Of a stretch of DNA of 64,000 nucleotides, positions 9,604 to 64,000 are shown piece after piece. Positions within the stretch are counted from its first letter, which is position 1. Every line of letters starts with the position of its first letter. The stretch is from Roseovarius sp. ZX-A-9 (GTDB lineage Bacteria; Pseudomonadota; Alphaproteobacteria; Rhodobacterales; Rhodobacteraceae): NCBI RefSeq assembly GCF_028369135.1, contig NZ_JAPWHW010000001.1, positions 186,001 through 250,000 on the forward strand, given 5' to 3'. The notes beneath the pieces are model-generated. The model was not told the DNA's origin, searched no databases, and saw nothing but the letters and a program-made list of their open reading frames with translations. A program made the position numbers and the translations under genes.

Positions 9604-9621
9604 GAACGCGGCACTGTTCCC

Positions 9622-10849: not shown

Positions 10850-10861
10850 ACTCTTCCTCTC

Positions 10862-11281: not shown

Positions 11282-11449
11282 CGACATGTCCTTGAATCTA
11301 AGCGACCGGTCCATATGCAAGTGGCCCCATTCTGGCGACCACCGCATGAAAGGAATATGGGCACTCACTCCGGGCGCCGCAAGGGCTTTGCGAAACGTGC
11401 AACAGCGCCTATCCTGTCTTTCCATGCAACCTTGAGGGAATCGGGGCTT

Positions 11450-11674: not shown

Positions 11675-11721
11675 CCGTCGCGGGTGAGTATAGTGCGCCC
11701 TCCAACATCGGGGGACACGAC

Positions 11722-12210: not shown

Positions 12211-13276
12211 CCCCCTGCCACAAGGCGCAACCATTGGTATCCTCGGCGGCGGGCAGCTGGGGCGTATGCTCAGCGTTGCAGCCGCGCGTCTGGGCTTCAA
12301 AACCTGCATCTTCGAACCCGGCGCCGACTGCCCCGCCAGCCACGTGGCCAACGCCCATATTCAAGCGGCATACGAGGACGAGGGCGCGCTGCGCAAATTT
12401 GCCGCCAGCGTCGATGTCATCACCTTCGAGTTCGAGAATATCCCCACCTCTGCGCTTGATATTCTTGAGGCGCTCAAGCCCGTGCGCCCGAACCGCAAGG
12501 CCCTGCGTGTCAGCCAGGATCGGCTGGTGGAAAAGGCATTTCTGAACGATCTGGGGCTGCAAACCGCCCCATTTGCCGCCGTGGATGATGGCGTGGACCT
12601 GACCCAAGCCATGTCCGAAATCGGCCTGCCCGCGATTCTGAAAACCCGCCGTTTTGGCTATGACGGCAAGGGACAGGCCCGTATCAGCAGCCCCAACGAG
12701 GCCGAAGCGGCGCTGGCCGAGATGAACGGCGCGCCGTCGCTCTACGAGGGGTTCGTGGACTTCAGCCGCGAAGTTTCGGTGATCGCCGCGCGAGGTCTGG
12801 CTGGCGACGTGGCCTGCTACGATCCCGGCGAGAATGTGCATGAGGGCGGCATCCTGCGCACCACGACCATACCGGCACGCCTTACCACCGCCCAGCGCAC
12901 CGACGCCGTGCTGCTGGCAGCGAAGATCCTGAACAAGCTGGATTATGTCGGGGTGATGGGGGTGGAGCTGTTCGTGACGGACGCCGGCCTCGTGGTGAAC
13001 GAGATCGCGCCGCGCGTGCATAATTCGGGCCATTGGACGCAAAACGGCTGCGCGGTGGATCAGTTCGAACAACATATTCGCGCGGTCGCGGGCTGGCCGC
13101 TGGGCGGCGGCGTGCGGCATTCGAACGTGGTGATGGAAAACCTCATCGGTGACGACATGGACCGCGTGCCGGATCTGGCAAAAGACGGAACTGCCGCGCT
13201 GCACCTCTACGGCAAGGCCGAGGTCAAACCGGGCCGAAAGATGGGCCATGTAAACAAGATCACCGGCCCGGCCTGA
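12203..13276 (+). CDS. purK: N5-carboxyaminoimidazole ribonucleotide synthase
   Basis: PurK is the ATP-grasp enzyme that carboxylates AIR to N5-CAIR, the substrate of PurE. The 357-residue sequence begins with [22 protein letters not shown] and contains [40 protein letters not shown] and the metal-binding stretch [15 protein letters not shown]. The start ATG lies inside the end of purE, with AGGAG 7 nt upstream; the longer open frame is not supported. A GC-rich hairpin follows its stop. Confidence 0.97.
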
Positions 13277-13293
13277 ACGCCCGCCGCAGCCGG

Positions 13294-13322
13294 GTCGTGC
13301 CGCGAAACCACCCCGGCACGAC
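13294..13322 (+). terminator. Hairpin downstream of purK
   Basis: GTCGTGCCG (13294–13302) pairs perfectly with CGGCACGAC (13314–13322) around an 11-base loop, between the convergent purK and rnr. The tail is TCTCTG rather than a T run. Confidence 0.45.
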
Positions 13323-13366
13323 TCTCTGTGCCAGAGGTTTCCAAGCGCTAGGGAAACGCCTGATTG

Positions 13367-28096: not shown

Positions 28097-28172
<76 letters not shown>

Positions 28173-28311: not shown

Positions 28312-30318
28312 TCAGATGTTGTCCGGCCTGAAGCCCAGCGCCTTTTCCTGCTTGCGCGCGCGCCGAACCGTTTCGGCCCGGCGGCGAAGGCCACGACGTT
28401 CTGCCCGCCCTTGCGCAAGGTTCCGCAGCAACTCGGCCAGCGGCGAAGGCAGGCGGCCCGGCCAACGCGCTGTGATCCAGCCCAACAGACGGACCATACC
28501 GGGGGCCATGTCCGAAAACAGCGCATCCTCCAGCGACACATAGGCAGCGGCGGACCCGCGCTGACCCTGCCGCCCGGTGCGACCGATCAGCTGGCGGTCG
28601 ATCCGCGACGAGCCGTGGAATTCGGTCACGATGACATGCAGCCCACCCTCGGCCTCGACCTCTTTGGCGACGGGGATATCGGTGCCGCGCCCGGCCATGT
28701 TGGTGGCCACGGTGATGCGCCCCGGCTGCCCCGCTTGCGCCACGATCTCGGCTTCGTCCGCGTCCTGACGCGCATTCAGAACCACCGGCGTCTGTCCCGC
28801 CGCGCGCAGCCGTTCGGCGATCTCTTCCGACGCGGCAACCGACCGGGTACCGATCAGCACGGGCCGCCCCTGCGCCGCCATGCGCGCCGCGTCTCGTGCC
28901 ACCGCCTGCCACCGCCTGTCCGCGCGACCATAGAGCCTTGTGCGCGCCATCCGGCGGCGGCTCTGGCGATGGGTCGGCAGGCGCAGCACGGCGCGGCCAT
29001 GGCTCAGGCGCAATTCGCGTGCCACTTCGGACGCGGTGCCGGTCATACCGGCAAACCACAGGTAGCGCGCGAAAAACGTCTGATAGGTGATCTGCGCCAG
29101 CGTTTCGCGCATGCCAGAACGTTCCACCCGCTCCTTGGCCTCGATCATCTGGTGCAGCCCGCTCTGCCATTGTCGGTCTGCCATCACCCGACCGGTGAAT
29201 TCATCGACGATGGCAAGGCCCTCATCGGTCAGGATGTAATGCTCGTCCCGCTTGTAGAGGTGCAGCGCCGACAGCGCCTGCACCATCGCTTCGCGCCGGG
29301 CGGTTTCTGCCACCAGCGCGGGCGTGGGCGGCACCAACCCCGCCAGCACGTCGTCGGCGGGCGGCAGCAGGCGCACGCGGCGCGCCTTGCGGTCCAGGTG
29401 GTAATGCGTGCCCTCCTCCAGCGTGTCGGCCAGCGCCAGCATCACATCATCCGCAGCGCGTTCCGCATCTCCGCCGGGGCGTTCGGCAGTGATGATCAGT
29501 GGCGTCTGCGCCTCGTCGATCAGGATGCTGTCAACCTCGTCGATCACCGCGAATCCCAGCCCCCGCGTCAGAATCCTCGCCGCGTCGCGCCCTCCGTCGC
29601 GGCCCAGCATGCGCCGCGACAGGGTGGCCAGAGCCGTGCGGTCATTCCCCATCGCCAGCCGGTCGCGCAGATAGTCGAAGGCTATGTCGGAATTGGTGGA
29701 AAATACCACATCGGAATCGTAGATCGCCGGCCGCAGGTGATGCTCGGTTTCCTCGGTGATGACGCCAAAGCTCAGCCCCAGCGCTTCCAGCACCGGGGCC
29801 AGCGTTTCGGCATCGCGCGTAGCCAGATAGGGGTTGACCGTGATCACATGCACCGGCGTGCCGGTGAGGGCCACCAGAACGGCGGGGATCAGGGTGGTGA
29901 TCGTCTTGCCCTCGCCTGTGGCCATCTCGACGATACGGCCCCGCGTCAGCGCCAGCCCGCCGGTGATCTGCACCGGATGATGCCGCATCTGCCGTTTGCG
30001 CCATGTCATCTCGCGCACCCCCGCGGCGGCGATGCGCATCGGACGCCCTTTCAGGCCTTGGGCCAACAGCAGCGGGGCCTGCGCGCGTATCTCTGCCACC
30101 AATTCTGCGTCATCGAGCGCGGCCAGTTCTTCGCCAATGCGCATCACGTCGCGCGTCTCCAGCCAGCTGCGCAAACCCGGCCCGGTGGTGGCCCGGCGCA
30201 GATACGACAGCACTGTCAGCACCACCTCGTCCGAGCGCTTGGGCGGGATCGGCCGCCGCTCCGGCTCTGCGGTATCGGCGCGCTCGGGCGTCACCCATGG
30301 GCGCGCGGCGTCAGACAT
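28312..30318 (-). CDS. SecA-like preprotein translocase ATPase without C-terminal third
   Basis: A 668-residue SecA paralogue; housekeeping SecA has about 900. The motor domains are complete: the segment HPVQITGGLALTRGRIVEMATGEGKT with Walker A at residues 134–139, VNPYLATRDAE, the crosslinking-domain entry VVFSTNSDIAFDYLRD, VIDEVDSILIDEAQTPLIIT (Walker B, about 258–276), WFAGMTGTASE, VLIGTRSVAASEEIAERL, VATNMAGRGTDI and the arginine-finger motif QLIGRTGRQGQRG (576–588). It stops some 70 residues later in an Arg-rich tail, so the helical scaffold/wing part and the zinc-binding SecB tail are absent. Its ATG overlaps the end of the M50 fusion gene by 8 bases. The inferred role is motor for export of the giant protein of the same operon. 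Confidence 0.88.
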   Translation of the reverse strand: MSDAARPWVTPERADTAEPERRPIPPKRSDEVVLTVLSYLRRATTGPGLRSWLETRDVMRIGEELAALDDAELVAEIRAQAPLLLAQGLKGRPMRIAAAGVREMTWRKRQMRHHPVQITGGLALTRGRIVEMATGEGKTITTLIPAVLVALTGTPVHVITVNPYLATRDAETLAPVLEALGLSFGVITEETEHHLRPAIYDSDVVFSTNSDIAFDYLRDRLAMGNDRTALATLSRRMLGRDGGRDAARILTRGLGFAVIDEVDSILIDEAQTPLIITAERPGGDAERAADDVMLALADTLEEGTHYHLDRKARRVRLLPPADDVLAGLVPPTPALVAETARREAMVQALSALHLYKRDEHYILTDEGLAIVDEFTGRVMADRQWQSGLHQMIEAKERVERSGMRETLAQITYQTFFARYLWFAGMTGTASEVARELRLSHGRAVLRLPTHRQSRRRMARTRLYGRADRRWQAVARDAARMAAQGRPVLIGTRSVAASEEIAERLRAAGQTPVVLNARQDADEAEIVAQAGQPGRITVATNMAGRGTDIPVAKEVEAEGGLHVIVTEFHGSSRIDRQLIGRTGRQGQRGSAAAYVSLEDALFSDMAPGMVRLLGWITARWPGRLPSPLAELLRNLAQGRAERRGLRRRAETVRRARKQEKALGFRPDNI

Positions 30319-32464
30319 CGAACGCCCGCAGGAACAGCGCACGCACCTCGCGCGCGACGCGCACCGCCAGCGACTTAGGCGCAAATGCCAGCCGCACATG
30401 GGCGCGCATGCCATAAGCCGGGCGCGGCGCACCATCGGGCAGCCCCAGGTCCAGCTGAAAGATCTGCCTGGCGCTGCGCAGTGGCCCGTCGCCGCCCGGA
30501 ACTGTCGCGAAGGTTCCGCCACCATCCAGCGCCAGCACCGGCGAAGGCAGCACATCACCGCCCGCGGGCACCTGCCGCAAAATGCTGGCGGACAGGATCA
30601 CATCCGGGCTATCGGCAAAGCGCAACTCGATCCCGCGTATTTCGCGGCTCATCAGCGTCGCCAGATCCTGCGGAATCGCCACGCGAATGACCGGTTCGGC
30701 GTCCGGCAATACATGCCCGATCACCGCGCCCCGGGCAAAGAACCGACCTTCCAGCCCGGTGGTCATCGGTAGGTTCAGCTGCCCGGGCAATGCTGCTGTC
30801 ACCTGCAATTGCGCCAACCGGGCATTGGCGTCGTCGCGGGCGATGCGCGCCTCGCGGACCCGGTCGCGGAATTTCGCGGCGCTGGCGCGATCCTTGGCGC
30901 GGGCGGCGGCATATTGCGCCTCGGCCTTGGCCAAGCGTGCGCCGCGCACCCGCGCCTCGGCTTCCAGATCGGGGGCCGCCACGGTGAAGAGCGGCGCGCC
31001 CAGCGCCACGCGGTCCCCGTGCGCTGCCTGCTGGGCGGTGATGCGGCCCGCTTGCGGCGCGCGCAGAATCGCCTCATCAGGCAGCCATACGACGCCCTGT
31101 ACTACCGCGTAATGCGGCAATGGCAGCGCAAAGAGCAACCCGCCAAGGACCACCACCGCCGCCCCCGCCCCCAGCACCGCGCGTTGTCCGACGCTCTGGA
31201 TACGCGGATCGGTCAGCCCCTTGTGCGCGGTCTTCAGCACCGGCCAGACCAGCATCAGCGACACCGACCACAGCGCCAGCAACACACCCACAAGCCGGTA
31301 GGTGGTGGCGATAAAGAGCGCGATGGTGATCGAGATGAAGATCCGGTAGGCGAACGCGGCAGGCGGGTAGAGCGCGAACCAAAGCCTCTCCCAGCCGCCG
31401 ATCTGCATACGGGTGCGCGCCCGCTCTCCGGTGCCAAGAAGATAAACGCGCACGACCTCACCCCACCATTCATTGCCGCGCTTGGCCATGTTGGGGATCT
31501 CGATGATATCGCACAGGACATGGTAGCCGTCGAACTTGAGCAGCGGATTGCCATTGACCGCCAGCGTCGACAGGCCGGAAATCACCATGGTGTTGAACAG
31601 CACCGTGCGCACCATCCCCGGCTCTGCCTGCGTCCAGAGGAACAAGGCAATGCTCGCGATGACCAGTTCGACAACGACACCGGCGCCAGCCACCGCCGCG
31701 CGGTCCCATTTGGACGGGAAGGAAAGCGAGGCCGACGCCTCGACATAGGGGATCGGATAGAAGGCGATGAACATCAGCCCCATTTCGTGCACTTCGCCGC
31801 CCCGACCGCGCACGGTGACACCGTGGCCGATCTCGTGCACCGCCTTGACGACGGGATAGATCAGCGCAATCAGCGCCAGGTTTTCAAGGTCCAGAAACCC
31901 TTCCAGCCCGCGCGCCGTCAGCGCCTGCCAGTGCAGCGGTAGCACCACCAGCGCAGCGACGATGATCACCAGCGCGCTCAGCCACCAAAGTGCGCGGGGT
32001 ACCGCGCCCATCGCGGATGAAAGCGCTTTCAGAAACTTGTCCGGGTCGATCAGCGGCAGGGTGATCGACGCCGGGTTCAGCAGCAGTTTCTTCCATTTTT
32101 GGATACGATCCTTGTCGCGCCGCTCCAGCAGATCATCCAGCAGCGGCGTCTCGGCGTTGTCCAGCAGGTCCGACTGGTGCAACTGGCTCAGCAGGCGGAC
32201 GATTTCGTCCTGCGTCGGCGCGTCTTCGGCCAGCCGCGTGGTCAGTTCTTCCCAGATATCCTCGACTGACCGCACGCCATCCAGCCGCCCGGCGACCTCT
32301 TGGGCGGCCGGGGTCAGGCGGTGCACCTTGGTCCCGGTGCTGTCGGTCAGCACATACCACGGCTGACCCAGATAGATGTGCCGGATGACCCGCACATCAC
32401 GGCGCAGGCGCGGGCGCGCGGCGCTGATCCGGTACCAGTCATTAGAGCGGTGCGTGTCCGACAT
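30311..32464 (-). CDS. PqqD-like/M50 site-2 protease/HlyD-type fusion membrane protein
   Basis: A 717-residue three-part protein. Residues about 25–115 resemble a PqqD-type winged helix (IYLGQPWYVLTDSTGTKVHRL, then VRSVEDIWEEL), which in other systems grips peptide leaders. Residues about 155–450 form a polytopic membrane domain with the site-2 protease zinc motif HEIGH (210–214) and the partner motif NPLLKFDGYH (307–316, Asp312). Residues about 455–700 are a HlyD-like periplasmic adaptor: lipoyl half (LRAPQAGRITAQQAAHGDRV), a coiled hairpin about 497–555, and a beta barrel. The ATG shares one base with the preceding stop (TGATG). I infer recognition, intramembrane processing and adaptor functions in one polypeptide; the substrate would be the giant protein. 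Confidence 0.85.
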   Translation of the reverse strand: MSDTHRSNDWYRISAARPRLRRDVRVIRHIYLGQPWYVLTDSTGTKVHRLTPAAQEVAGRLDGVRSVEDIWEELTTRLAEDAPTQDEIVRLLSQLHQSDLLDNAETPLLDDLLERRDKDRIQKWKKLLLNPASITLPLIDPDKFLKALSSAMGAVPRALWWLSALVIIVAALVVLPLHWQALTARGLEGFLDLENLALIALIYPVVKAVHEIGHGVTVRGRGGEVHEMGLMFIAFYPIPYVEASASLSFPSKWDRAAVAGAGVVVELVIASIALFLWTQAEPGMVRTVLFNTMVISGLSTLAVNGNPLLKFDGYHVLCDIIEIPNMAKRGNEWWGEVVRVYLLGTGERARTRMQIGGWERLWFALYPPAAFAYRIFISITIALFIATTYRLVGVLLALWSVSLMLVWPVLKTAHKGLTDPRIQSVGQRAVLGAGAAVVVLGGLLFALPLPHYAVVQGVVWLPDEAILRAPQAGRITAQQAAHGDRVALGAPLFTVAAPDLEAEARVRGARLAKAEAQYAAARAKDRASAAKFRDRVREARIARDDANARLAQLQVTAALPGQLNLPMTTGLEGRFFARGAVIGHVLPDAEPVIRVAIPQDLATLMSREIRGIELRFADSPDVILSASILRQVPAGGDVLPSPVLALDGGGTFATVPGGDGPLRSARQIFQLDLGLPDGAPRPAYGMRAHVRLAFAPKSLAVRVAREVRALFLRAFDV

Positions 32465-34338: not shown

Positions 34339-34345
34339 AGCGGGG

Positions 34346-34717
34346 TCAGTCCTTCAAGGAACCGTAACGTCCCTCGTATTCGTCGATCAACTCGTTGAGA
34401 ACCTCGCGCAGTTTGCTCGCTGCATGTGGGCTCATGATAACCCGGTGCGCAATCTCGATCTCCAGATCGCCATCGGTCCGGTCCCAGCTCTGGTTGAGGC
34501 CAAAGTTGATGACCACCTCCTCGCGGGTCGAGGTGGCGTTGCAGACGTTGCAATAAGAGCTTTTCATCCGGCTGGTATCCAGCTTGACCCGCCGTTCCGT
34601 TGCCACGGGTTCGGGGGGTGGTGTCGGCTCCGGCTTGACGGCTTTGGCTTTGGTCGCCTTGGCCGGTTTCGTGCTGGTGTTTTTCTGGTTGTTTGACTGG
34701 CCGTTCTTCTGGGTCAT
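34346..34717 (-). CDS. DUF3467 family protein
   Basis: A 123-residue soluble protein. The first 40 residues are a Lys/Pro/Thr-rich disordered tail. The rest is the DUF3467 domain: KSSYCNVCNATSTREEVVINFG (about 52–73), QSWDRTDGDLEIEIAHRVIMSPHAASKLREVLNELIDEYE. The fold is unknown to me; the domain is small and predicted to be beta-beta-alpha with a C-terminal helix. Its ATG overlaps the stop of the giant gene (34714–34717), which suggests tightly coupled synthesis and a possible role as chaperone or regulator of the giant protein. That role is inference from context only. Confidence 0.85.
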   Translation of the reverse strand: MTQKNGQSNNQKNTSTKPAKATKAKAVKPEPTPPPEPVATERRVKLDTSRMKSSYCNVCNATSTREEVVINFGLNQSWDRTDGDLEIEIAHRVIMSPHAASKLREVLNELIDEYEGRYGSLKD

Positions 34718-61700: not shown

Positions 61701-64000
61701 GCGCCGCGTTATCCTCGCGCCCGGCCTCGAAGACCTGGCCGTTGATGTCTGTGACCACCAGGAAACGCCATGTGCCTTCGGCCAGCGAAGGCAGTGTCAC
61801 ATCCAATGACACATCGACGCCCTGCCCCGGATCAAGCCCGGCGGAATGGGTGAAATTTCCCAGCGAGCGCGCACCGCTGAGCGTGCCTGTGGGGCTCAGG
61901 TAAACGCGGTCAGTAAAGGGCGCGCGGGCCGTCGCCTCGCCCACGTTCTCGGTGCGCCATGTTACCCGGACCACATCGCCTGGCGACCCGTCGGCAGGCC
62001 CTTCGACATTGCGCACCACCAGATCGGCGGCGGGCACGGCAGAGATCGCCACCGGCTCCAGCGCCAGCCCCTGATTGTTGCCCTCTCCCAGCCCTTCTGC
62101 CTGGGTATTGGCCGCGTCGGTCACCACGATCAGACGATAGGCCCCGGTCAGATTGGGCGGAATGCTGACATTGGCGCTGGCGGTATAGCTGCCACCCGGA
62201 ACCAACGGCGCTGCGGGGGCTGCAACCTCGGCCAGCAGGATGTCGCCCTCATCGAAAACGCCGTCTTCGCTGAGATAGACCCGGTCCAGCCAATTGGAGT
62301 CGCTGGCCGTTGTGCCGGCATTGCCCACCCGCCACGACACCGGTACGCTCTCGCCCCAGCTGGCGGCATTGGGGCCGGCCACGGCCTCGACCACCAGATC
62401 GGGGGCGGCACCGGGCGCGATGGTCAGCGCCGTCGGACCACCAGAATTGTTGTCTTCGTCGTCCCCTTCGACGATAGCACCCTCTGCGTCGGTCACGATA
62501 AAGAGGTGGAAATCACCCACCTGATCACCCGGCAACATCACATTGACGCTGACATCGTCCGATGCACCCACCGCCAGTGCGGGGCGGGTCACATTGTCGA
62601 GCACGATATCATCGCCATTGCCCAACGTTTCATCCGAGGACAGGATCACCCGATCAACCCGTTCGCCCGCGCCTGCATCGCCGCCATTGGTGACGCGCCA
62701 GTCGAGCTGAACCATGCGGCCCGCCACTGCTGCGCCGGTCACGGTGGGCGCGGTCACGGTCAGATCGGGATAGGTCTGTTCCCGCGAGGTAAAGGACAGT
62801 TCGGCAAAGTTGTTGTTCTCGGCGTCGCCATCTGCGTTGACCTCGATCACCGCAGGAGAGCTGCCATTGTCCACATAAACTCGGAACCGCAGATTGCCGG
62901 TGCCCGAGGCCCCGTCAGGCAACTGCGTGGTAAAGCTGCGCGTTCTGGTCGCGCCCACGGGCAAAAGCACGCCCGCGTCCGCCTCGAAATCAATCCGCTG
63001 GTTCACCGGCGTGTCACGCGCATCAAGGTTGGTCAGTTGTACCAAACTGCGGAACGGCACCGGCAGATCGGCGGTGCCCGCGTTGCGGATGGTCCAGGTA
63101 AAGGTAACTGTATCGCCCGCCTGTGGATCGGCCTCGACGATCTTCAGCCCTTCGATCACCAGATCGGGGGCGTTGATCACTTCGAATACGGTCGTGTTGT
63201 TGGTCTCGCCGGTGCCTGCGTCATTATCCTCGGGCACGGCGTTGTCCAGATCGGTGGTGATCTCGAACCCCATCGTGCCGGTGCCGTCCACACCATCGGG
63301 CCAGGTGATGGTCGTGCTGCGTTCCACCGTGGCCCCTGCCGCGATCACTCCGCTTGTAGCCGGGTCATAGGCCAAGCTCTGCACGTCAAGCGTCGGGTCG
63401 TTGTGCGGTGTCAGGTTGCGCAGGCGCAATTGGTCGATGAAGGGCTGCGTGACATCCGAACCGCCAGTGTTGCGCAGGGTCCAGCGCACCGTGACCGTAT
63501 CGCCGGGCTTGTACCCGCTGGCCGGTTCGGCGCGGATATTTTCGACCACCAGATCGGCCAGTTGATCGTTGAGCGCGGTAAAGGCGACCGTGGCGATGTT
63601 GTTCCGTTCGGGGGCGATACCACCATCCGTCTCGTCAATGTCATTGGCGATATCCACCTCGACCTCGGCAATCAGATCGCCCGCCCCCAGCGCGCCGGAG
63701 GGCAGGTTGAGCGTGGCCTGACGCGTCACGCTGGCCCCCGCACCCAGCACCTCGGTGCCCGCGGCGATGACGCGCACGCCAACGATCTCGCCGGTATCGA
63801 CGCGGCGCAGGATCACCCGGTCGCGGCCCGGCACCACCCCGACGGCACCGGCGTTCGTTTCGGTCCAGCTGACGGTCAGGTCCATGCCCGCCTGCACCGG
63901 TCCCGCAGCACTGACAGAAACGCTCGACGGCACCAGATCGGGCGCCACGCGCGCCGCGCTACTGGCGGGCACCGCCGCGCGGTACGGCACTTCGAGCAGG
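34714..64000 (-). CDS. Giant multidomain CARDB/Ig/dockerin surface or secreted protein (N-terminus outside window)
   Basis: One open frame of at least 9,761 codons without a stop; the 5' end lies past 64,000. Order from the N-terminal side: 17 CARDB modules, a PPC-like and a TIG-like domain, an unassigned alpha/beta stretch, a beta-propeller, nine He_PIG repeats, an RHS-like stretch, a dockerin, Big2/ZU5-like domains, a second propeller, an alpha/beta-hydrolase-like domain, further beta domains, a glycine-rich helical region, an M6-like protease motif, cadherin-like and PKD domains, a cohesin-like domain, a single calcium loop and an acidic tail. I see no RTX nonapeptides, LPxTG motif or autotransporter barrel. 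Many Asp-rich calcium-type loops suggest an extracellular, Ca-stabilised filament or adhesin. It is the first visible gene of the export operon and the presumed cargo. Confidence 0.92.
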   Translation of the reverse strand, partial: LLEVPYRAAVPASSAARVAPDLVPSSVSVSAAGPVQAGMDLTVSWTETNAGAVGVVPGRDRVILRRVDTGEIVGVRVIAAGTEVLGAGASVTRQATLNLPSGALGAGDLIAEVEVDIANDIDETDGGIAPERNNIATVAFTALNDQLADLVVENIRAEPASGYKPGDTVTVRWTLRNTGGSDVTQPFIDQLRLRNLTPHNDPTLDVQSLAYDPATSGVIAAGATVERSTTITWPDGVDGTGTMGFEITTDLDNAVPEDNDAGTGETNNTTVFEVINAPDLVIEGLKIVEADPQAGDTVTFTWTIRNAGTADLPVPFRSLVQLTNLDARDTPVNQRIDFEADAGVLLPVGATRTRSFTTQLPDGASGTGNLRFRVYVDNGSSPAVIEVNADGDAENNNFAELSFTSREQTYPDLTVTAPTVTGAAVAGRMVQLDWRVTNGGDAGAGERVDRVILSSDETLGNGDDIVLDNVTRPALAVGASDDVSVNVMLPGDQVGDFHLFIVTDAEGAIVEGDDEDNNSGGPTALTIAPGAAPDLVVEAVAGPNAASWGESVPVSWRVGNAGTTASDSNWLDRVYLSEDGVFDEGDILLAEVAAPAAPLVPGGSYTASANVSIPPNLTGAYRLIVVTDAANTQAEGLGEGNNQGLALEPVAISAVPAADLVVRNVEGPADGSPGDVVRVTWRTENVGEATARAPFTDRVYLSPTGTLSGARSLGNFTHSAGLDPGQGVDVSLDVTLPSLAEGTWRFLVVTDINGQVFEAGREDNAALDDDPFGLATPDFQVTNVSAPDAATSDSVITVNWTVQNAGFGNAVGGRVDRILLSRDGIADGNDIVLHTTAARDALAAGGSDMQSVDVRVPIDVSGDWQLIVVADATDRNEEQALENNNHLARALAVQLADHADLAVTEVTAPPLTVADPAVITVGWRVSNIADTRGKETGWTDQVWASKDDILGDADDILLGSFLRDGGLAPGQSYVRSEAINLPSGFSERLKIYVVADATNLVFEDGKTDNNRGVQDGFTDVAVKPYADLKITSIEAAAAGVSGTDLEVSWTVRNDGIGVTDRTSWSDEILLSRNPDGSGRVTSVRYTHLGSLQVGDSYQRTAVIRVPNGVEGQLYVSVETADIGAPYEFVFDDNNVSDRVRTTITLAPTPDLQVSDIATVETSPEGEIIDVAWRVSNAGAAPLDGSWTDRLVLVPIDSSKPSITVGTFTNSRALAVGESYQRTERFRLPERIEGAYRLTVVTNYNRGIYEEGAAADNNTGTDDRPLTVTLNPRPNLQVASVVISPEVSAGGGQQATFEIINQGSVAATGAWQDSVYLSLDDKLSSDDVLISRTGNPLALAPGESYTVVSDIGTIPLRWSGDAYVIVSTDSNAKVDEYPAESDNQRAEKFNVTALPRPDLVTGSVVAPAQAVFGSEIEVRYRVTNRGAGDTLDDTWRDTIWIARDPRRPNTSAFVDVGGTDFLKGNSARLLGTVTHTGGLAVGDSYEMTVRVRIPADLPSGQYFITPWSDSYDVVAEDTLAININPDDPNELDNNNYKGRAIDILGYTPVRPDLVISDVTSEAPAFAGTDQLTIGWTVTNDGLTGTPDTWIDRVYLSDSAVLGAPGETLWHLGDVRREGGIAPGESYRASATFDLPPSGAGQFVHVITDASVRGRQAVVEENEDNNLATGTADVTNAPADLRVIAVSAAPGATSGEPLAVTWTVRNDGAAVWDGTQYWRDAVWLSRDPVFDRNRATYLGGVIHQNISGLAAGASYTETTEVILPAGSDGDYFLHVATDVANFGKLPNGENLEGQIDRASGFYTSSVFEDENDPSGNFGRGSVDITYAEPDLVVSAFDVPADGASGGQIAVTYTVTNQGSRATRESRWYDRFFISVDGALDPQDHMIGEFRRDGALGIGESYTETVMLDLPLGLEGDYTIVMETDATSDEGGTYQASTIRAGLRGLRIVSDDVDEFVGEGNNRASAPIAVEAAETADLIVSALTLPQRGVTGQPLNVSYAITNAGVRSTGGGWRDLIYLSRDESLDPRTDFFLGFHDHRTALEPGEVREIDLATRLPKGLSGSYFVFVLSDPVSGSNPAGSVFEDGAEINIRASAQPLLIEQVPPADLIASDVAIGGGSAPGAPVNVNWTVTNQSAAAANGRWSDAVYLSRDGTWDIGDTFLGRFEHSGGLDAGESYAGSLTADLPILSDGAWRVLVRTDARNEVFEDAFEANNTTAGANPINVESPLIPLGIDRVVALDGASERLFRIEVPAGETLRVSLSGGDPNVPNEVFVKAGSPPSQSDFDASHDTVFGTRQEAIISSTEPGIYYILVRSFGGDDATPETDHVLRAEVLPFQILSVSPDQGGSARFVTMTIDGAGILPGAVVKLSRPGVAEFLPVSLKRIDATRVIATFDLEGAEHGLYDVIVTNADGAEAVLPYRYLVERQVERDVTVGLGGPRVVPAGQAGFYSVSVDSLTNVDTPYVYFTFGAPEIGTSDMVYGLPFLEFATNVGDGSDAPADGLTGAQSAVNLGGQLLAPGYAFDLAAEGQAQMTFAVQTYPGLQALIDRDFEGIKTYLYNRFPDLEETDALASGVDALEAVDPLIHEIFTDPGFDVISGDLPWYLPFQFNVVAAATPMTRNEFVAAQRAEAEKLRQAVLADAGATPALQTLAADADAWTDGFLAALETAGLLRDEADAPPVFEQTRVTSLIAQLSQGLLLGPAGDEVRSGGDLVDFYAQVRGWYGDTPDQLAPIDRYDIRLPPQGLPFDVPVAALPDFADFDQGLSRPTTFTAFNVYSPWLGEGAVNLPDFGSDATTSELEALDLDRFREIAGIAQGEGAAWLRGPVGAGDDNWVPEDAALPHEVGFELDEASPRPARELRIVTTLDEGLDARSFRLGGLTLGDLTVQVPPGRLVYQTDIDLSATRGFVLRVSAGIDLDSRTASWLVQAIDVATGEVLEGEGANGLLRPGEAGSVRYTVLADEDAASGAVVAAEARVILDVSAPEDTDPYTYRLDQGAPITSYDARRIPGTSDYRITWSATDEAGGSGVRDANIYVSLDDGDFRIVARNETTGEFIYTAPDGATVEVLVLARDVAGNRAAAPPGVAASGDIGQDVVDLGGSDVGSTTQAAPLPVADGALPEPVNALFVQALEGVPATISPLRPGMFATAVAPFAFEAFVGSLPGSQGGIGALAVLGLEDGSVLYSGGPDRAWLYRVDAEGAGGAEPLSRLGLPIYDLAQAPDGRLWATSGGGALLELDADTGEIIGQYGDGITQSVTVGADGTIYVSTGDGVAIFNAATETFTAFSNTRVDDLAIAPDGSLWGTSWPDRGRVLRFGADGQAEVIAQVPAPLDSITFGTPGTEFAGLALLTSVRDGAGDAALSRIFALDVASHQIVSVAAAPIRGEGIAALNDGRVIVAHGTGLDVLRPLYAPEVIASTLVDGQIVSQPVASFSFRFDDDMATSGAGSVLDPANFALIDGNGEILPITSVDYDSDLREVTLRFASLPRGIYAVSIAADVQSARGVAMGAPYTVEFTRLQDATANVRIEYQNTRYDRQTGTATYEVIVTNIGARPLLAPLQLTLDAADPTGSGIPLSGVRASDLWLIDLTDAIGEDGILSPGESATALAVTLLLEAGQRGAFEHGVRILPGSNSAPVILEDMPTEAEVGTMYEHTFLAADLEGDSIGFVLVSGPDGMVVDPETGRLTWTPDENAAPTTPVVLRAYDDAGGFGEITWEITIEEGLNSAPQLEQPTALIELVEGEQMRLPFLAFDDDLDMLLLFADKLPRGAYLDQDRQELVWTPQPGQRGLYQGVTIGVSDGAAQTTASFDIVVRPGNSAPVVATPLPLEVREGDPLRIAITAADPEGGALRYSAPVLPAGAVINPETGVLEWTPGYTQMGNYEVPVDVTDGTGTTRVVLRINVANANGAPVMQGFDDWTLTEGQALFFRTAALDPDNPDYILPERDPDGALLHYEGSQRESVSYTLTGLPDGASYDAGTGQFIWQTGFADAGRYVMRLTATDDGDGTGVAASRSIDITINVEDLNRPPELPDLPNRTVAGGEVIEIPLTSVDPDGNLLRFEATATRAAGADQLDLDPTPIPLDGSSPFGQLVTSAGGEVTLRLTPQELDRGDWRIDLRVEDDGNGTAANAQRDEGSFVLTVEASNLGPVLAPVGGLVAVPGQQLEYEFTATDADRDPLTFNIAGLPEGAVLSAGNGYGRAVLRWTPTEADIGAHTLTLKVTDTGAGVPGNALSDTLVIPVTVRAVNGGPILQPIGDLTVAELDTLTQTISAADPEGDPLTFSATGLPVGAEIDPLTGVITFTPHSFQSGVYEDIVITASDGHTAATETIKLTVTNTNRAPIFVQTPPQTGREGAEFGFRLLAGDIDGDGVVFEPVGALPRGATLDPITGEFRWTPDYAQAGDYTIKVRVRDAAGADSEQDVSVKVLNRNRAPVLNLQNRAVVLGETLELHVGATDPDADDVLTLAAENLPDTASFDPATGILTFRPELGDLGDNVVRITAFDGTDTVSRNMVLRVTREAQLPTAVLDVTPRFPARPGQTVTLSVAGSGFVPVVSYRLTIDGQEVALSDLNRASFVPDAPGRVTAVLEVTDADGRVGTTTKVIAVRDATDRDAPDLALDIADGAVLSAGPVIGSVLDPSLANWRAILVPASGPAILLGEGDGPVTDGPVGQLDPGLVQSGFYTLRLEAVDVAGLASVLERKVEVLPSASATLRRAEVDATVELGGATLDLTRIYDARDAGKFGDFGAGWSAGWTDLALDAGPASGQHRALREGDRVHLTAPDGTRLVFTAEFETQRIAGLDRAILRFASPTAGYTLSHDGPLLTESEGGLYSVVSGLPYTPFGRGGEVLTLELPDGTVWHADGSGSVKAVETGGVRLIIADSGIIAPDGSAVQVVSNPLGGIAGLTLPDGSRRIYLYDDAGRLSFAGGSGVGAPMLYAYEAGAGGRLIAATGPEGAHYRYDADGSVTVSTAMHHFGTLAEAAPRSVVLGAGESDGSTLAIRTSELESASGRILLRVAIDGPAPAGLTLSGMEPESVERSGGTTVALFAVEASGLFGLELTGGAAGTYRIAISAAGDLNGDGAVNGTDLGAQDTAPTDINSDGVADAADRALLLQNFGLLPNSAPVLTPQAQKTYTDLAIDIPLAQMAEDAEGDPIFYEIIGAVGGTATLTADGRSIRFTPEAGRTDPGRVIIRASDGYRSSGAQTLAIDISGAALESIEFSTRTPYLADGQRIDFDITGSFADGGTAALPEGYVTVNFADPAVARLRTGQLEGLGDGFSLLTATRGAVTAATVVRSGKQSDYDEALITYGADVYPDAVVVTPGAERQLLLFDPFDENVIQTRGDEVLKYVVNGNIVEVTADGRIIGKAVGETIVQVIYRATELLVPVQVRAPVVGDAVPVGKEGGIVQNADGYQVAIAEGALPRDTQITIETLSEADVEAPPLPTGVGFEFASAFRLDTGDAPMRIPAQLAIPTDLPEGTMVAFYRITDFVTEDGLVKGYQQVETGRIGADGMARTTSPPFDGLRAAGEYVMATVDEALTRQVGYTADVRGKNATDAVQASSFVTSLGGVGGAVMGAMNAGGNMVLNLPRSVTGIITTVFNADTFEYIGEKVLQIIEGAADLVISIVGSAAADAIAGTAPVITSTTTLLTGQTAESAVVDPRLEIRGNRLAAPVGSTNALPTWVVFGNFDRDELQQAMLEAGEAEVDAVLRAKQSGGVAVRADYRVEGGEDVLTVRPPRDVAVSSVIVVRPDSAFQTYGFAPTPTQYATDSPTGDGYRDVTWEFSEAAQIRGRETDTFVAVERGIEQPEGAEVATVQGKLDQLVVIREVDDGLGRILPGLVARIPVGYLDENGVTIEEKGSARPDKVVLTQDATRLYVGLAGAGGIAVVDAVMYRQIDVKPEDKDRTNFIEMPGARIGEIFLDRANNFLIATDTSKPVLYFIGINPDDPASYHKLVLTRTLDEDWPITGATLTPDFSQLIVTQADRSDPGGNGRAAIYDLAALMNPSAASARAVPLFEFGRRGAGNGTFMRNPQGVQTRIAIEDNQIKAIIMDGGRQDGTTGSSGAYNGNLAILNRDTKSGKWTVEENVSFNFPLGADHDAGSDPFDIADPIDIVFSNDGKTAFVLGQRRFDERFIERNPNLSDNNPVRRYQNNPAGTNIAVIKNLLGTSRGLTPTVVAATRGIPSSWGSDIGLSSDGEYLYMSGGSVGNVLAYRIDEIVEMIENEDAQGHLYDHPVDDLDSDGDPITDNLRNYINTDIDARAAYGKFFFEGRGSYIGPIEGPNARNAPIVTGGITRAVAESRSIINLAPDGISGDLNVTGGTGSINLPRYAAEQNPQPTFHFELTDLDEVVEVVFTLAVAAPDKGLYVGDSTLPEIEALKKLGYVDSRLDGVPLTDTLKVEGNRNRIYTRTITREEVMADFADGKFQITLPPNTVLTRGQQYYWGVETVLQGSNNHPRTASLEASLVIEPATPAPGDAYAGVTIVTHGMSTPIIGPNVDETSMFNLALSIAKASDGAVLVYDPGIGSDGGRRLGNWITVRGDPHTASSIVLVTDWTDASSVNDTGFAEAAADAFYADIVDLDKSELNGLLTSPLHFIGQDRGAAVNSEIIQRLLALEGPDNLGEIHATTIDPGSVQPQMRVPLADFLGAVEDMGKLVAVGFFTYGLVQTFGTISSYGTLAPVTVPATVAAFRNAKAAANFASTVGDIKSAVTWLGFDVLDYTNFQDPKVVNWKGVGFADNYFQQAVDPKRAISFSWRGLPLDSADVNMNLTGLPGFFEDDAVPDTSFDLGFGIFNFATPQLGMGLGTVNARAVGWYLGTADLGAETYTGVGQAPDNIWRQASDRFIETKTAFPPPGDLWHFGTLARYYSDATAPKPADIVKSSEGYDTNLKSWYVSREFEQRRARTDAQSAVDNRAWEGVGTGWFYSSLGGGSELRGLINSSARGKYDPTKIQNATQTGQTEIIEDVFNGDFESTFRPFYGRVPVIGRSAYEIAGWSFHGGGISSEGRVNPQADGFEAATLMQAIPIPGVNSLTPHLDTDKLQAKFEAFAASSPTAVATDAFDKLKTLATFLLNEVFAFSEIAGAGDVATNEALNLLYEGKSKISDLPGLLSKLIVKTGLKLHDLTFGGGAMDILKEMALSDLANGRTLLSWPNQPPLSGFGAINLRDNNQAEAALTEWLTVEARERRSISVGSSIASFAGGELIKRIPALMKYIQENLLTYSFELQPGRSLVHNTLKFPEGKNLLGIDLTWLRPIVTPEPGFSRGNELNVYAEVDNVLYRLLPETPEDAIARDDGELREAKRVMFQLPPQVVGEVGRIVIVNGTASGAEINPFRAEIDNISFDGKVLVTDTDGDSEDLNILFDDKGQLVENGDGLASFLTSEEAGTGTDRHELNITNNNDKPINITIRIPQNDFLTVGAVQGEWKRSDGQLLSDVPLDMLDGATSDTLTLRLLAGSEAILSLSASVDRARLQELLGIDGISLLTAQMGVEYDVEGAPQSYSQKANLFYMLDGGDASAIDGTLQIADTTSGQERQIVIPMRGVLADPAGFEASIINPQQDGWLSVDASTAGQLTLGFAPRGVLATPGTVQPVLEDSGIIRLFWQGNQIGEYEVEGRGTAPQTVNLDTAALRAALITQLEALLEQEAADDVPEEESFAALFDGLTASRWAEIKAEIEKQVNALLAPAGATGFTVTQGADGDLTYEFTQGSDTGASLPVEPSDAEEGAAETSESLEEALEEQKARVDDPKAKFDKAADLLNGIFVADEAEQDQFSDLADDFGAAVSGAVSAAGDLQNRIAAEEAEFANIAAALEGDAGAFENLASGLTSLMSDLASSNLTLEPSMTEVLDNQVRLMAQAEAQVQTAEQTQLFNQMRAITDAMSASSRKLIESLSSSGLMGGTSFKARNDLSDTANSGLAQMMSSLTSGGGGGGIGGILSGLSRQLGGTQAGAEVANVFTGIVSESRGLFSSMGGMFGETKSIISGLVDALGGALDPTEVQKSQNTLSEMQTQMGKFLDTMQKVSVQSIGTLAATTLAKDPLEAVGARAMTLGTDVLNQADGLEAQAHAYESSHALMANGARDSAHGGEATADAIENSLRSNFDAGAQQLTEIRTRGINLNVNTQKFLEAVSTLSSSAFGGDSSDDGGAGGSTDIGASLGGLLGNISGTLGNINGLVDGLLGNFTEISEIGSNQMSAAGGSVSGMGGLLNSVGSLLGSVGNSSLLSDVHSGGGSGGGGGGGIFSANFANLIAEALNAENSPSSKGAGGLLGGTGRLLDSLTGLLGEAESGERNPMNPLSVPITEMRETMTGMMGKMSGMLGDLSGFLGGDRLPSSFFEKLSETKADAATGQAWFVEAETANSGLSGMLAGLFKDALGDGAASPMAKLGEKISGAFSLNSETLAKMGEMLNGIESDGNGILDLLARAETDPETLKDLGRKVVDADTAWGRTEAELGLTEARLNSAKDAAEAAGVGADGALGALDGAITGALGEIGAQGALMGGALDDILALAQRITELKAGDAAEAEALRSEFTDKIAAAKAEAEKTREKVDAAKEETEEPLQDIVDEVAEITDATRLGFASFDFTPVNPGPDDELATLLRSDVDDILTPAQQRFRLDALFNADRNSDRVVIDTKALFDALKKPSREDGFDPIKAFAETIAWTYAHEIAHTLGLPDLYDFTNGAPLEGAGIMGLRNDFTLTSAHEGAIRLASDNPEAGAEADVSAVLDMLRTASAAGVLAEDETGNRDYLLAPPVGSLPLRDTGWNVLGNVTQTPAGALDLVETAISRTSTYRALQVPAGASELTFTIRSRLGVAEYAAPDAFEVALLRNSGTPLTVLSGLSNTDAALNLQGSGQLRLANGLSVVDRGVDFDGFAVREVTVDLAQIGGPAAFALSFDLLGFGGIEARVLIEELTFDVPSALNNTAPVLTGGSSVTLDEDASALIDLRPLVTDAEGDPLTIEITQGPANGTLVAVEPGVWRYTPSPDFNGTDILSFTASDGVFRPFPAILSLVVRPQNDAPVLAGTARATVKEGDQLLLQIAAADIDGDLLTYTLEDGPAGAAITADGGLSWTAPDGPTTRIFRILADDGHGGQARQTLTVDVENAAPVLTLTAPDTSVVETAARVSFAATDPGGDAIGPVTIDWGDGTTEVLPAGATGSSHTYMRLGRFAVTLTATDEEGAEGRTTQVIEVVTPGLRVTQVTSGAWGVNVRFNEAVDTGLPNPYRLDTRPGEPVDVMLLDAEGNPVRGSLVPDADERGFTFLATEGALPPGEYRLRLTADDLGWRSRWDVLEAGPLGYEERVITISEAPVTLALQGAVQTAGQALGVRGSGLAVTMTQSGGLRSMVVQVSWDADLMQISGLVSKLAGAMVSRVDAGGTPGQATFRIAFDTAPEAGTVEIARLMGRMNAGANYGTSGAPLRMRVAEINGVATADPAAPALFARAFGEGAFGRAAPAPAASETRALTLVAQRGDADGDGTVSAADLARFAALPEDSLEGLSAWAFIDPNLLRPLPSEGGATGDDDTLQTLSARTGRSGTFGDTAVRSFSALATGNALSLIDAAQEATGDGGGNQLLYLRYTTPQPLCLVPEHMADDPGAAARAARAGLCFDGLPADLSDADQIWRLNGITPVGQQDHGEVTRAADGEVCIVGALPEGAEPGDTYRLAPLPQKDQTPAAATEAAITEPGDLPAQFRMCFDEMDSVEAAPATPQEDAALDVAPSEDRLSSFTALALLSAAVPTRPGSARTKNGHGSARHAILLSDMNESDQGAK
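35561..35630 (-). other. Single dockerin-type calcium loop in the giant protein
   Basis: The segment GDADGDGTVSAADLARFA carries one loop of the form D-x-D-x-D-G-x-x-x-x-x-D, followed by a helix. Only one of the two loops of a full dockerin is present. It follows the cohesin-like domain. Confidence 0.65.
35745..36105 (-). other. Cohesin-like domain in the giant protein
   Basis: The region reads like a cohesin or type I cohesin relative: LRSMVVQVSWDADLMQISGL near the middle and ATFRIAFDTAPEAGTVEIARLMGRM later, ending MRVAEINGVATADP. Cohesins bind dockerins. The match is by pattern and should be treated as tentative. Confidence 0.5.
36440..37265 (-). repeat. Cadherin-like/tandem-95 repeats and a PKD domain in the giant protein
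   Basis: NTAPVLTGGSSVTLDEDASA starts a tandem-95-type repeat with DAEGDPLTIEITQGPANGTL and FNGTDILSFTASDG. A second, NDAPVLAGTARATVKEGDQL, follows, then a PKD domain with VTIDWGDGTTEVLPAG, SHTYMRLGRFAVTLTATDEEG. These are common in large bacterial adhesins. Confidence 0.75.
37890..38230 (-). other. M6-like zinc metalloprotease motif in the giant protein
   Basis: The segment WTYAHEIAHTLGLPDLYDF has HExxHxxGLPDxYD, as in InhA-type M6 peptidases, at 38,017–38,031 for HEIAH. It is followed about ten residues later by GAGIMG, which fits a Met-turn. The domain boundaries are estimates. Confidence 0.65.
38300..40840 (-). repeat. Glycine-rich helical low-complexity region in the giant protein
   Basis: About 850 residues rich in Gly, Ala, Ser, Leu and Met. 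Heptad-like helices such as EEALEEQKARVDDPKAKFDKA and AEAEALRSEFTDKIAAAKAEAEKTR flank glycine runs (SGGGGGGIGGILSGL and GGGSGGGGGGGIFS). The composition differs from the beta-domain remainder of the protein. Confidence 0.75.
44000..44585 (-). other. Alpha/beta-hydrolase-like domain in the giant protein
   Basis: YAGVTIVTHGMSTPIIGPN opens a hydrolase-like sheet, followed by GAVLVYDPGIGSDGGR and IVLVTDWTDASS. The nucleophile-elbow position reads HFIGQDRGAAVNSEIIQRL (near 44,205–44,238), with Asp in place of the usual Ser. A following Asp-rich loop, ATTIDPGS, may hold the acid. Confidence 0.55.
45340..46450 (-). repeat. Beta-propeller-like region 2 in the giant protein
   Basis: Repeating blade-like strands: DATRLYVGLAGAGGIAVVDA, RANNFLIATDTSKPVLYFIG, TPDFSQLIVTQADR, NDGKTAFVLGQRRF and SSDGEYLYMSGGSVGNVLAYRID, the pattern of YVTN-type propellers. 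Confidence 0.65.
47540..48380 (-). other. Big2-like and ZU5-like domains in the giant protein
   Basis: LESIEFSTRTPYLADGQRID and a second copy around VTPGAERQLLLFDPFDE, with VTADGRIIGKAVGETIVQV, resemble bacterial Ig-like group 2 domains. GYQVAIAEGALPRDTQITIE and MRIPAQLAIPTDLPEGTMVAFYRI resemble a ZU5 domain. Confidence 0.55.
48390..48796 (-). other. Canonical dockerin pair and adjacent cadherin-like repeat in the giant protein
   Basis: DLNGDGAVNGTD and DINSDGVADAAD are two full dockerin calcium loops, separated by a short linker, at about 48,662–48,796. NSAPVLTPQAQKTYTD begins an adjacent cadherin-like repeat. Confidence 0.8.
49070..49890 (-). repeat. RHS-like region in the giant protein
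   Basis: LDLTRIYDARDAGKFGDFGAGW resembles the N-terminal part of RHS shells, followed by LTAPDGTRLVFTAEFE and YD-type strands such as LTLPDGSRRIYLYDDAGRL and GPEGAHYRYDADGSV. Only a few YD repeats are present, so no full cage is expected. Confidence 0.65.
50470..53122 (-). repeat. Nine He_PIG (putative Ig) repeats in the giant protein
   Basis: Nine modules of about 98 residues start with forms of N-x-A-P-V, such as SNSAPVILEDMP, GNSAPVVATPLPLEVREGDP and NRAPVLNLQNRAVVLGE. Each contains DPEGD-like calcium loops and xLPxGAxxDPxTGxxxWTP. Confidence 0.85.
53780..54515 (-). repeat. Beta-propeller-like region 1 in the giant protein
   Basis: Repeating strands such as LAVLGLEDGSVLYSG, APDGRLWATSGGGALLELDADTG, GADGTIYVSTGDGVAIFNAATE, APDGSLWGTSWPDRGRVLRF and ALNDGRVIVAHGTGLDVL match SMP-30/NHL-like propeller blades. 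Confidence 0.65.
57000..57320 (-). other. PPC-like domain in the giant protein
   Basis: IDRVVALDGASERLFRIEVP, AGETLRVSLSGGD and IISSTEPGIYYILVRSFGGDD form the strand pattern of bacterial pre-peptidase C-terminal domains. A TIG-like domain with ILSVSPDQGGSARFVTMTIDG follows. Confidence 0.7.
57340..63940 (-). repeat. Seventeen tandem CARDB modules in the giant protein
   Basis: I count 17 modules of about 129 residues. Each starts with a form of A-DLVV-x-x-V, then VxWTVxNxG, then DRVYLSxD, LxPGxSY and ends VxTDxxxxVxExxExNN. The modules are clearly divergent from one another at DNA level, so the array is old. The first lies 60 bases from the window edge and more may precede it. Confidence 0.88.

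What the first reader, a model, noticed from the sequence alone, without database searches (positions are those of the whole stretch)
28312..64000. A five-gene operon that looks like a dedicated export and processing system for a giant protein
Directly seen: five co-directional genes with 4-nt overlap, 7-nt gap, 1-nt overlap and 8-nt overlap, coding a >9,700-residue mosaic protein, DUF3467, GAF–HlyD, PqqD-like–M50–HlyD and a shortened SecA. Known: HlyD proteins bridge to outer membrane channels, SecA drives translocation, M50 proteases cut in membranes, PqqD-type domains grip leader peptides. Inferred: these four act together to recognise, push, process and release the giant protein. No ABC transporter, TolC or RTX signal is visible, so this is not an ordinary type I system. 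I am not aware of a characterised system with this composition.
Basis: partly seen in the sequence, partly recalled or inferred. Interest (0 to 1): 0.93.

Follow-up and report, generated by a model that had tools for sequence, protein, structure and literature searches.

The report
Leader-tagged giant protein export system
Beside a bacterial gene for a protein of about 11,600 amino acids sits a recurring set of membrane-adaptor, protease and ATPase-like genes that, in the genomes sampled, occurs almost only where there are large proteins sharing one short tag near their front end, and that likely exports them by a route unlike the secretion systems it was tested against.

Summary
The five minus-strand genes, with the stated overlaps and gap, are real. 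The giant frame runs past the window to 11,593 codons. Next to it, divergent, is a sixth gene, a periplasmic adaptor.

Tag and machinery go together. Of 292 genomes of the order, 24 of 26 with LEPR-XLL over cut-off also have the PqqD–M50–HlyD gene; 258 of 266 without it lack the gene (p 4e-26). Of 249 genomes of the phylum, 76 of 78 with a strong PqqD–M50–HlyD carry LEPR-XLL or DUF4347 proteins; 12 of 171 without it do. The order GAF–HlyD, M50–HlyD, short SecA recurs in alpha-, beta-, gamma-proteobacteria and Desulfobacterota.

Best reading (function inferred): a dedicated exporter whose PqqD-like domain grips a LEPR leader, as in daptide RiPPs, whose leader protease is its best NCBIfam match. 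No held paper we found links these parts.

The parts
28312..30318 (-). Short SecA-like ATPase (668 aa): DEAD/NBD1, preprotein cross-linking domain and NBD2, plus a short tail of its own; no scaffold, wing or two-helix-finger region (domain anatomy recalled). Walker A at about 29902-29916.
   Evidence: Pfam (query began 26 codons upstream); alignment to the genome's own full SecA covers 97-601 of 668 against 125-646 of a 947-codon frame; profile A4 separates this class from canonical SecA; conserved next to M50-HlyD
30311..32464 (-). PqqD-like domain, intramembrane M50 metallopeptidase and HlyD/MexA-type adaptor in one protein (717 aa). PqqD about 32162-32356; HEIGH about 31823-31837; adaptor part from about 31126 to the end.
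32464..34338 (-). GAF domain, a hydrophobic segment (by eye) and a HlyD-type adaptor (624 aa, TTG start)
   Evidence: Pfam; family profile 652 bits; adjacent to M50-HlyD in 73 of 76 named loci with room (in the other three it is there but the stop-to-stop frames overlap)
34346..34717 (-). DUF3467 protein (123 aa), optional member
   Evidence: Pfam; 29 of 80 named loci (L117 only by weak hits), 12 of 36 order-draw loci; model beta-beta-beta-alpha, no confident PDB match
34714..64000 (-). Giant protein: CARDB, He_PIG, cadherin-like, PKD and PPC modules, an HExxH site at about 38017-38031. It continues beyond the window to ATG 69495; its LEPR-XLL element, METFEPRLLLSAD, lies within 69232-69297 (window numbering carried on). 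The sixth gene, a periplasmic adaptor with a signal-peptide-like start, is at 69695-70510 on the + strand.
   Evidence: frame; Pfam; LEPR-8K 26.8 bits, cut-off 17; adaptor RND_mfp 121.8 bits, cut-off 94.9; 4 cysteines, no RTX

Best explanation
This gene set is likely a dedicated export system for giant proteins that carry one shared N-terminal element, LEPR-XLL, which would act as a leader gripped by the PqqD-like domain of the M50-HlyD protein. Shown: the element, the gene order, the intact protease motif, the adaptor fold in the model, and the close co-occurrence of tag and machinery. Inferred: the giant, in which no classical signal peptide is seen by hydropathy, is recognised at the inner membrane by the PqqD/RRE domain; the M50 site then cuts the leader off, as the homologous daptide protease does; M50-HlyD, GAF-HlyD and the small periplasmic adaptor together form the periplasmic tube that docks on a TolC-like or other outer-membrane protein encoded at the locus or elsewhere. 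The short SecA would supply ATP-driven holding or unfolding of the chain in the cytosol rather than the classical SecYEG push, since it lacks that part, and some systems do without it.
For: Tag-machinery link: order draw 24/2/8/258, p 3.6e-26; phylum draw, LEPR-XLL or DUF4347 against strong M50-HlyD, 76/12/2/159, p 2.9e-48; 32 of 34 named genomes with the module have LEPR-XLL. 26 of the 30 best DUF4347 proteins carry the same kind of motif just upstream. Element consensus in 52 of 53 loci: (hydrophobic)-E-x-L-E-P-R-(L/I/V)-L-L-S-(A/G)-(D/E), median frame 7,567 aa (R was required by the pattern used). The 27 long-frame C-termini printed fall into several unlike groups, so the signal shared by all is N-terminal. 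Short SecA: at least 30 of 249 genomes, all 30 with strong M50-HlyD, 27 with LEPR-XLL; 36 of 38 copies within 1.5 kb of the M50-HlyD gene, the other two with none listed on their contig. Motif R-x3-L-x6-(S/T) in 41 of 50 small adaptors, 200 shuffles mean 11.9, max 22. OEP/TolC genes by Pfam at three loci tested, L072, L073, L085. Daptide parallel: the protease model matches over residues 16-405; daptide leaders carry ELExMEAP and are removed by the RRE-dependent intramembrane peptidase (PMC10036551, passages), cut after ELExxxxx (PMC12338566, passages).
Against: No experiment shows that any of these giants is exported or cut. The energy source is unclear: the SecA class lacks the C-terminal third, has no recognisable ATPase motifs in three loci (L062, L066, L132; by alignment), is not adjacent in L117 and L168, and 15 of the 16 order-draw genomes of the weaker-scoring type show a single SecA match in the whole genome. 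No outer-membrane channel lies at the window locus; TolC-like genes elsewhere are three over cut-off and one below. The window's own small adaptor has P in place of S/T in the TolC motif, and M50-HlyD has the motif no more than chance, 14 of 80. G141 has M50-HlyD without a giant; 12 genomes have tagged proteins without strong M50-HlyD, 2 the reverse; two named module genomes, G539 and G542, have no LEPR match. Some related systems do share C-termini (L083, L084, L085, L088, L089), so a second signal is not excluded. LEPR-8K also rings in one of 14 control genomes, Deinobacterium chartae, not followed up. Co-evolution of the parts (Mantel r 0.70-0.89) and the p values do not allow for common descent. 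The LEPR-daptide likeness is a resemblance, not a binding test.
Confidence: 0.68

Rival explanations
1. A type I-like tripartite exporter: the adaptors serve an ABC transporter encoded elsewhere in the genome, and SecA and M50 are side functions.
For: Three HlyD-type adaptors; the adaptor part models like MexA/MacA/AcrA; OEP genes at three loci tested; the giant is poor in cysteine (4 in 11,593).
Against: No ABC-type signature within about 39 kb of the window operon by pattern; among the 36 order-draw loci one ABC-containing BLAST cluster recurs in 5, at scattered places (one member, L055, tested as ABC_tran); the signal common to all substrates is N-terminal; no RTX repeats. Type I ABC genes elsewhere in the genome were not searched.
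Confidence: 0.15
2. Sec-dependent export: the LEPR region is an odd, long signal peptide, canonical SecA/SecYEG moves the giant, and the locus does late steps (cutting, surface release). Overlaps in part with the best explanation.
For: LEPR-(LIV)LLS(A/G)(D/E) follows a basic stretch in the window-like systems and ends A/G-D/E after S; the genome has a full SecA.
Against: The hydrophobic stretch is short: highest 15-residue Kyte-Doolittle mean 1.5 for the giant and at most 1.8 in the relatives that read as giants, against 2.3 for the small adaptor's signal-like start (no signal-peptide predictor was run). Sec alone needs no PqqD-M50-HlyD partner, yet the two co-occur closely.
Confidence: 0.2
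3. A sensing module: GAF senses, the M50 protease does regulated intramembrane cutting, and the giant's gene is only regulated by it.
For: GAF domains and site-2-type proteases occur in signalling in general (recalled).
Against: Both proteins carry HlyD-type adaptor parts, and the shared feature of the partners is an element on the giant itself. None of the nine gene clusters recurring in three or more of the 36 loci, one member of each identified, was a sigma or anti-sigma factor.
Confidence: 0.06
4. Only shared history: the genes travel together on plasmids and islands without working together.
For: Patchy spread (32 of 292 genomes); one relative sits on a 62-kb plasmid (L096); tRNA-Ala beside the operon.
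Against: Overlapping genes in the window and the same order across classes and phyla; the bodies and C-termini of the giants change while the N-terminal element stays.
Confidence: 0.05

Closest known systems
LEPR-XLL domain proteins (NCBIfam NF012209, 'LEPR-8K') and DUF4347 proteins (Pfam PF14252)
   Same: The window's giant scores 26.8 bits, cut-off 17; long frames, short N-terminal element.
   Different: Two held papers hold the word LEPR-XLL (the passage in each read); neither passage ties machinery to it. The Vibrio paper (PMC10868602) tells of a ~8,000-aa LEPR-XLL giant with C-terminal RTX and serralysin domains; the window giant has no RTX.
Daptide RRE-intramembrane peptidases (NCBIfam NF041824; DapP/MpaP)
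   Same: PqqD/RRE domain fused to an M50 protease, match over residues 16-405 (139.9 bits); leader with an E-L-E core (papers).
   Different: Below the model's cut-off of 300; here a HlyD adaptor is added at the C-terminus and the presumed substrate is a giant protein, not a peptide; no daptide gene set was seen among the recurrent clusters.
Type I secretion / tripartite pumps (HlyBD-TolC, MacAB-TolC)
   Same: HlyD/MexA-type adaptors; TolC-like genes at some loci; TolC-contact motif in the small adaptor.
   Different: No ABC engine found at the window locus; common N-terminal element; protease and PqqD-like domain fused to an adaptor.
SecA / SecA2
   Same: NBD1, preprotein cross-linking domain and NBD2, with motifs intact in the window copy.
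   Different: About a third shorter: canonical SecA in the same draw match the class profile only to about position 553-560 of 668, the short class to 658-667; the missing part would hold scaffold, wing and two-helix finger (recalled anatomy).
SapC (Pfam PF07277; name recalled from Campylobacter S-layer export)
   Same: SapC genes sit in 19 of 80 named loci and 9 of 36 order-draw loci.
   Different: Not in the window operon; not universal.

Membership tests
LEPR-XLL proteins (NF012209) | Match to the 24-position model over its curated cut-off | tested here: met
   26.8 bits against 17; 33.2 bits in the genome search
Type I secretion system | ABC transporter partner at the locus | tested here: not met
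   Pattern scan of 123 kb: nearest ABC-type ATPases at 109,485 and 121,828; type I ABC genes elsewhere in the genome not searched
Type I secretion system | HlyD-type adaptor and TolC-type channel | tested here: inconclusive
   Adaptors met; TolC absent from the window locus, OEP genes elsewhere, three over cut-off and one below; OEP at three relatives' loci
Type I secretion system | C-terminal RTX repeats | tested here: not met
   0 RTX nonapeptides in the giant; RTX is common in, not required of, type I substrates (recalled)
SecA (TIGR00963 / PRK12904) | Equivalog cut-off reached | tested here: not met
   488 bits against 800; 493.1 against 814
SecA2 (TIGR03714, TIGR04221, TIGR04397, NF012136) | Cut-off reached | tested here: not met
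   398/930, 368/725, 432.8/1085, 329.5/1100 bits
SecA-type translocase | Scaffold/wing/two-helix-finger region | tested here: not met
   No SecA_SW hit; alignment to the genome's full SecA ends at residue 601 of 668
Daptide leader peptidase (NF041824) | Cut-off reached | tested here: not met
   139.9 against 300 bits, but over model positions 1-367 of 379
Daptide leader peptidase | Cuts a leader after an ELE-type motif | not testable with these tools
   Motif likeness only
M50 / site-2 protease | HExxH and second motif with N-P and D | tested here: met
   Invariant H208 E209 H212 and N304 P305 D310 in 51 sequences
M50 / site-2 protease | Pfam PF02163 gathering score for the window protein | tested here: inconclusive
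   21.3 bits against 27.2; 28.9 with neighbours in the frame
PqqD / RRE-type domain | Match over cut-off | tested here: met
   PF05402 25.0 bits against 23.4; binding not tested
SecB-like chaperone (for DUF3467) | SecB fold in the model | tested here: inconclusive
   No SecB among the 50 rows shown, best E 0.13

The most novel reading that the evidence does not exclude
A new type of protein secretion system in Gram-negative bacteria: an N-terminal LEPR leader, read by an RRE-type domain and cut by an intramembrane protease fused to a periplasmic adaptor, exports proteins of up to 15,000 residues, with a finger-less SecA as an add-on ATPase. RiPP leader logic would thus have been scaled up to some of the largest bacterial proteins, and LEPR-XLL and DUF4347 giants would be substrates of one system.
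Probability: 0.5. Interest if true: 0.95.

Novelty: categorically new. Interest (0 to 1): 0.87.

Why it matters
How bacteria export single chains of 5,000-15,000 residues that bear no type I signal is, as far as we know, open. Here a short tag and a gene set predict each other closely, which turns the question into simple experiments: delete one gene, mutate four residues. It would give a function to LEPR-XLL, DUF4347 and a SecA class now easily taken for the general translocase, link RiPP leader chemistry to protein secretion, and ask how a SecA without its translocating part can work.

Tried and rejected
DUF3467 as a SecB-like chaperone: not supported; the model (27 sequences, mean pLDDT 78.5) is beta-beta-beta-alpha and the best PDB rows are weak PC4 and PUR-alpha ones, E 0.13 and worse.

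A C-terminal signal common to all giants: not seen. The 27 C-termini printed fall into unlike groups, though some near relatives share theirs (L083, L084, L085, L088, L089; L061, L064, L067; L070, L071).

The TolC-contact motif in M50-HlyD: 14 of 80, not above shuffles (mean 8.7, max 16). In GAF-HlyD 36 of 74 (mean 13, max 24).

LEPR matches in short frames (L030, L033, L036, L037, L038; also G132, frame 71) do not read like giant N-termini and look false; the two over cut-off (G280, G236) were still counted as misses.

M50-HlyD genomes of the order draw without LEPR over cut-off (8 of 32): G050 and G174 have weaker matches in frames of 3,913 and 3,357/3,006 aa; G035, G138 and G277 have an adjacent long frame with LEERILFDA, LEPRTMFDA, LEDRIVLAG near its start; G102 and G291 run off the contig; G141 has none.

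Of 80 named loci, 25 show no clear 1,000-codon frame in reach; many of these contigs end nearby. For two with room (L135, L157) LEPR frames of 13,628 and 15,161 aa appear to begin just outside the fetched stretch.

Limits: the window M50-HlyD query and the structure job used 30393-32458, which lacks 27 C-terminal and 2 N-terminal residues; the SecA query used 28312-30396, 26 codons too long at the N-terminus. 'Strong' M50-HlyD in the phylum draw means E below 1e-100, set after seeing the gap between 3.4e-50 and 1.3e-142; its profile was built from order-draw relatives. Short-SecA genomes were sorted by hand from capped lists, so the counts are lower bounds. The logo used 53 of 59 loci L178-L236 (six short-frame ones left out) and a pattern that required R; L234 (Y for the core L) is the one not counted; L188 and L226 appear to be one organism. 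Planctomycetes were not searched. Papers: only the held library; searches were made; few bioRxiv texts are held.

Full report
WHAT IS THERE. The window is C11:186001-250000 of a 4.69-Mb genome in 62 contigs, 99.92% complete. On the minus strand the genes run: giant (from ATG 69495, past the window edge, to 34714), DUF3467 (34346-34717), GAF-HlyD (32464-34338), PqqD-M50-HlyD (30311-32464), SecA-like (28312-30318); the junctions are 4-nt overlap, 7-nt gap, 1-nt overlap, 8-nt overlap. The giant is 11,593 codons with one terminal stop and GTAGGA just before its ATG. It is built of CARDB, putative-Ig, cadherin-like, PKD and PPC modules, has 4 cysteines, one HExxH site near residue 10,489 and no RTX nonapeptide. 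Upstream and divergent, 69695-70510 +, is a periplasmic adaptor with a signal-peptide-like start (RND_mfp 121.8 bits).

THE TAG. The giant's N-terminal region reads METFEPRLLLSAD and matches NCBIfam LEPR-8K, 26.8 bits against a cut-off of 17. In the window-like systems the element lies mostly 43-110 codons after the frame's upstream stop, behind a basic stretch, often with a start such as MSFPF or MAFPF; in the weaker-scoring type 11-43 codons after the stop. In 52 of 53 loci examined the core is hydrophobic-E-x-L-E-P-R-(L/I/V)-L-L-S-(A/G)-(D/E): E after the core L in all 52, P in 42 (R was required by the pattern); frames have a median of 7,567 aa, 681 to 15,161. DUF4347 proteins carry the same kind of motif: 26 of the 30 best have LE-x-R-x-(L/M/V/I)-(F/L/Y/M)-x-(A/G) upstream of the domain.

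TAG AND MACHINERY PREDICT EACH OTHER. Order draw, 292 genomes: LEPR over cut-off in 26, M50-HlyD (E up to 1e-10) in 32, both in 24; Fisher p 3.6e-26. The two LEPR-only genomes have short, doubtful frames. Phylum draw, 249 genomes: LEPR (E up to 0.01) 45, DUF4347 78, strong M50-HlyD 78; either tag and M50-HlyD 76, tag only 12, M50-HlyD only 2, neither 159; p 2.9e-48. Named genomes with the module: LEPR in 32 of 34 searched, 35 asked, one not held. The p values do not allow for shared descent.

GENE ORDER. Of the 80 named loci kept, GAF-HlyD is present in 77, SecA-like in 77 (adjacent in 77 of 79 with room; not in L117 and L168), the small adaptor in 51, DUF3467 in 29, SapC in 19, and a frame of 1,000 codons or more clear of the module in 55. 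By record title they come from Rhodobacteraceae, Hyphomicrobiales, sphingomonads, Roseomonas-like bacteria, gamma- and betaproteobacteria, Desulfobacterota and one Nitrospira bin. Distances of the four machinery proteins correlate in the five pairs tested (r 0.70-0.89; highest of 999 permutations 0.18), which common descent alone could also give. A second type, with weaker M50-HlyD matches (E 4e-45 and worse), has giants and adaptors at nearly every locus but no SecA-like gene there; 15 of its 16 genomes show one SecA match genome-wide.

HOW IT LIKELY WORKS. Daptide work gives the lead: there an RRE domain is fused to an intramembrane site-2 protease, precursors carry ELExMEAP, alanine at L(-7) or M(-4) stops processing by the RRE-dependent MpaB/MpaC pair, and MpaP is said to remove the leader (PMC10036551, passages read); cutting is after ELExxxxx (PMC12338566, passages). 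The same fusion, in a homologous protein, here goes with N-termini of the form E-x-L-E-P-R-x-L-L. I therefore infer that the PqqD domain holds the LEPR leader at the inner membrane, that the M50 site cuts it during or after passage, and that the three adaptors form the periplasmic tube to an outer-membrane channel. Which channel is open: OEP/TolC genes at L072, L073, L085, Omp85-type proteins at L070, L071, L085, none at the window. The inner-membrane pore and the energy source are open; the short SecA is best seen as a helper ATPase.

WHAT IS KNOWN. LEPR-XLL is in 2 held papers, whose passages only name it. DUF4347 is in 4 (one on type VI effectors) and DUF3467 in 1; by listing none is about such a system. 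Searches joining giant proteins, HlyD, M50, PqqD, site-2 protease, SecA and TolC gave no paper on such a system by the titles and abstract starts shown (the listing of 99 showed 12 of 92). A review of type I and tripartite systems has no M50 in its held text, about 300,000 of 747,799 characters. A survey of huge proteins (PMC11573180) has no LEPR in its held text. A subscription paper or preprint could exist.

VERDICT. It fails defining features of type I (engine at the locus), of SecA and SecA2 (cut-offs, C-terminal part) and of the daptide protease (cut-off), while working like parts of each. Function remains inferred. The rivals' odds overlap with the best explanation and do not sum to one.

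Noticed in passing
window 28097-28172: tRNA-Ala (GGC) gene, + strand, about 140 bases beyond the SecA-like stop: a possible integration site for the operon.
   Followed up: no
L096 (NZ_CP049043.1): A system with M50-HlyD 90% identical lies on a 62-kb plasmid of Pseudohalocynthiibacter aestuariivivens; with the patchy spread this points to horizontal transfer.
   Followed up: no
L062 10182-11984, L066 6596-8317, L132 12330-13865: SecA-like copies without recognisable ATPase motifs that keep their place in the operon: pseudo-ATPases?
   Followed up: partly
L056, L057, L058, L069, L083, L084, L085, L088, L089; 19 of 80 named loci: SapC (PF07277; six members tested by Pfam) recurs at these loci, with a radical SAM gene nearby in L056.
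   Followed up: partly
L070 4370-5524, L071 3475-4710, L085 17805-19226: Omp85-superfamily proteins beside the module: a candidate outer-membrane port.
   Followed up: no
window about 38017-38031; L058 and L062 giants: HExxH metalloprotease-like motifs towards the C-terminal end of giants (HEIAHTLGLPD, HELGHTLGFTH, HEIGHVAGLDH).
   Followed up: no
L083, L084, L085, L088, L089: Giants of this subgroup share a C-terminal end (NRFNYEFLS-like): a possible second signal in SapC-bearing systems.
   Followed up: no
P0054: A 908-aa relative of M50-HlyD that also bears the SecA_DEAD domain: a natural fusion or a frameshift.
   Followed up: no
L075, L092 (genome G141): The one M50-HlyD gene of the order draw clearly without a giant; near a gene of the OEP cluster and long frames that, by eye, look like parts of a contractile injection locus.
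   Followed up: partly
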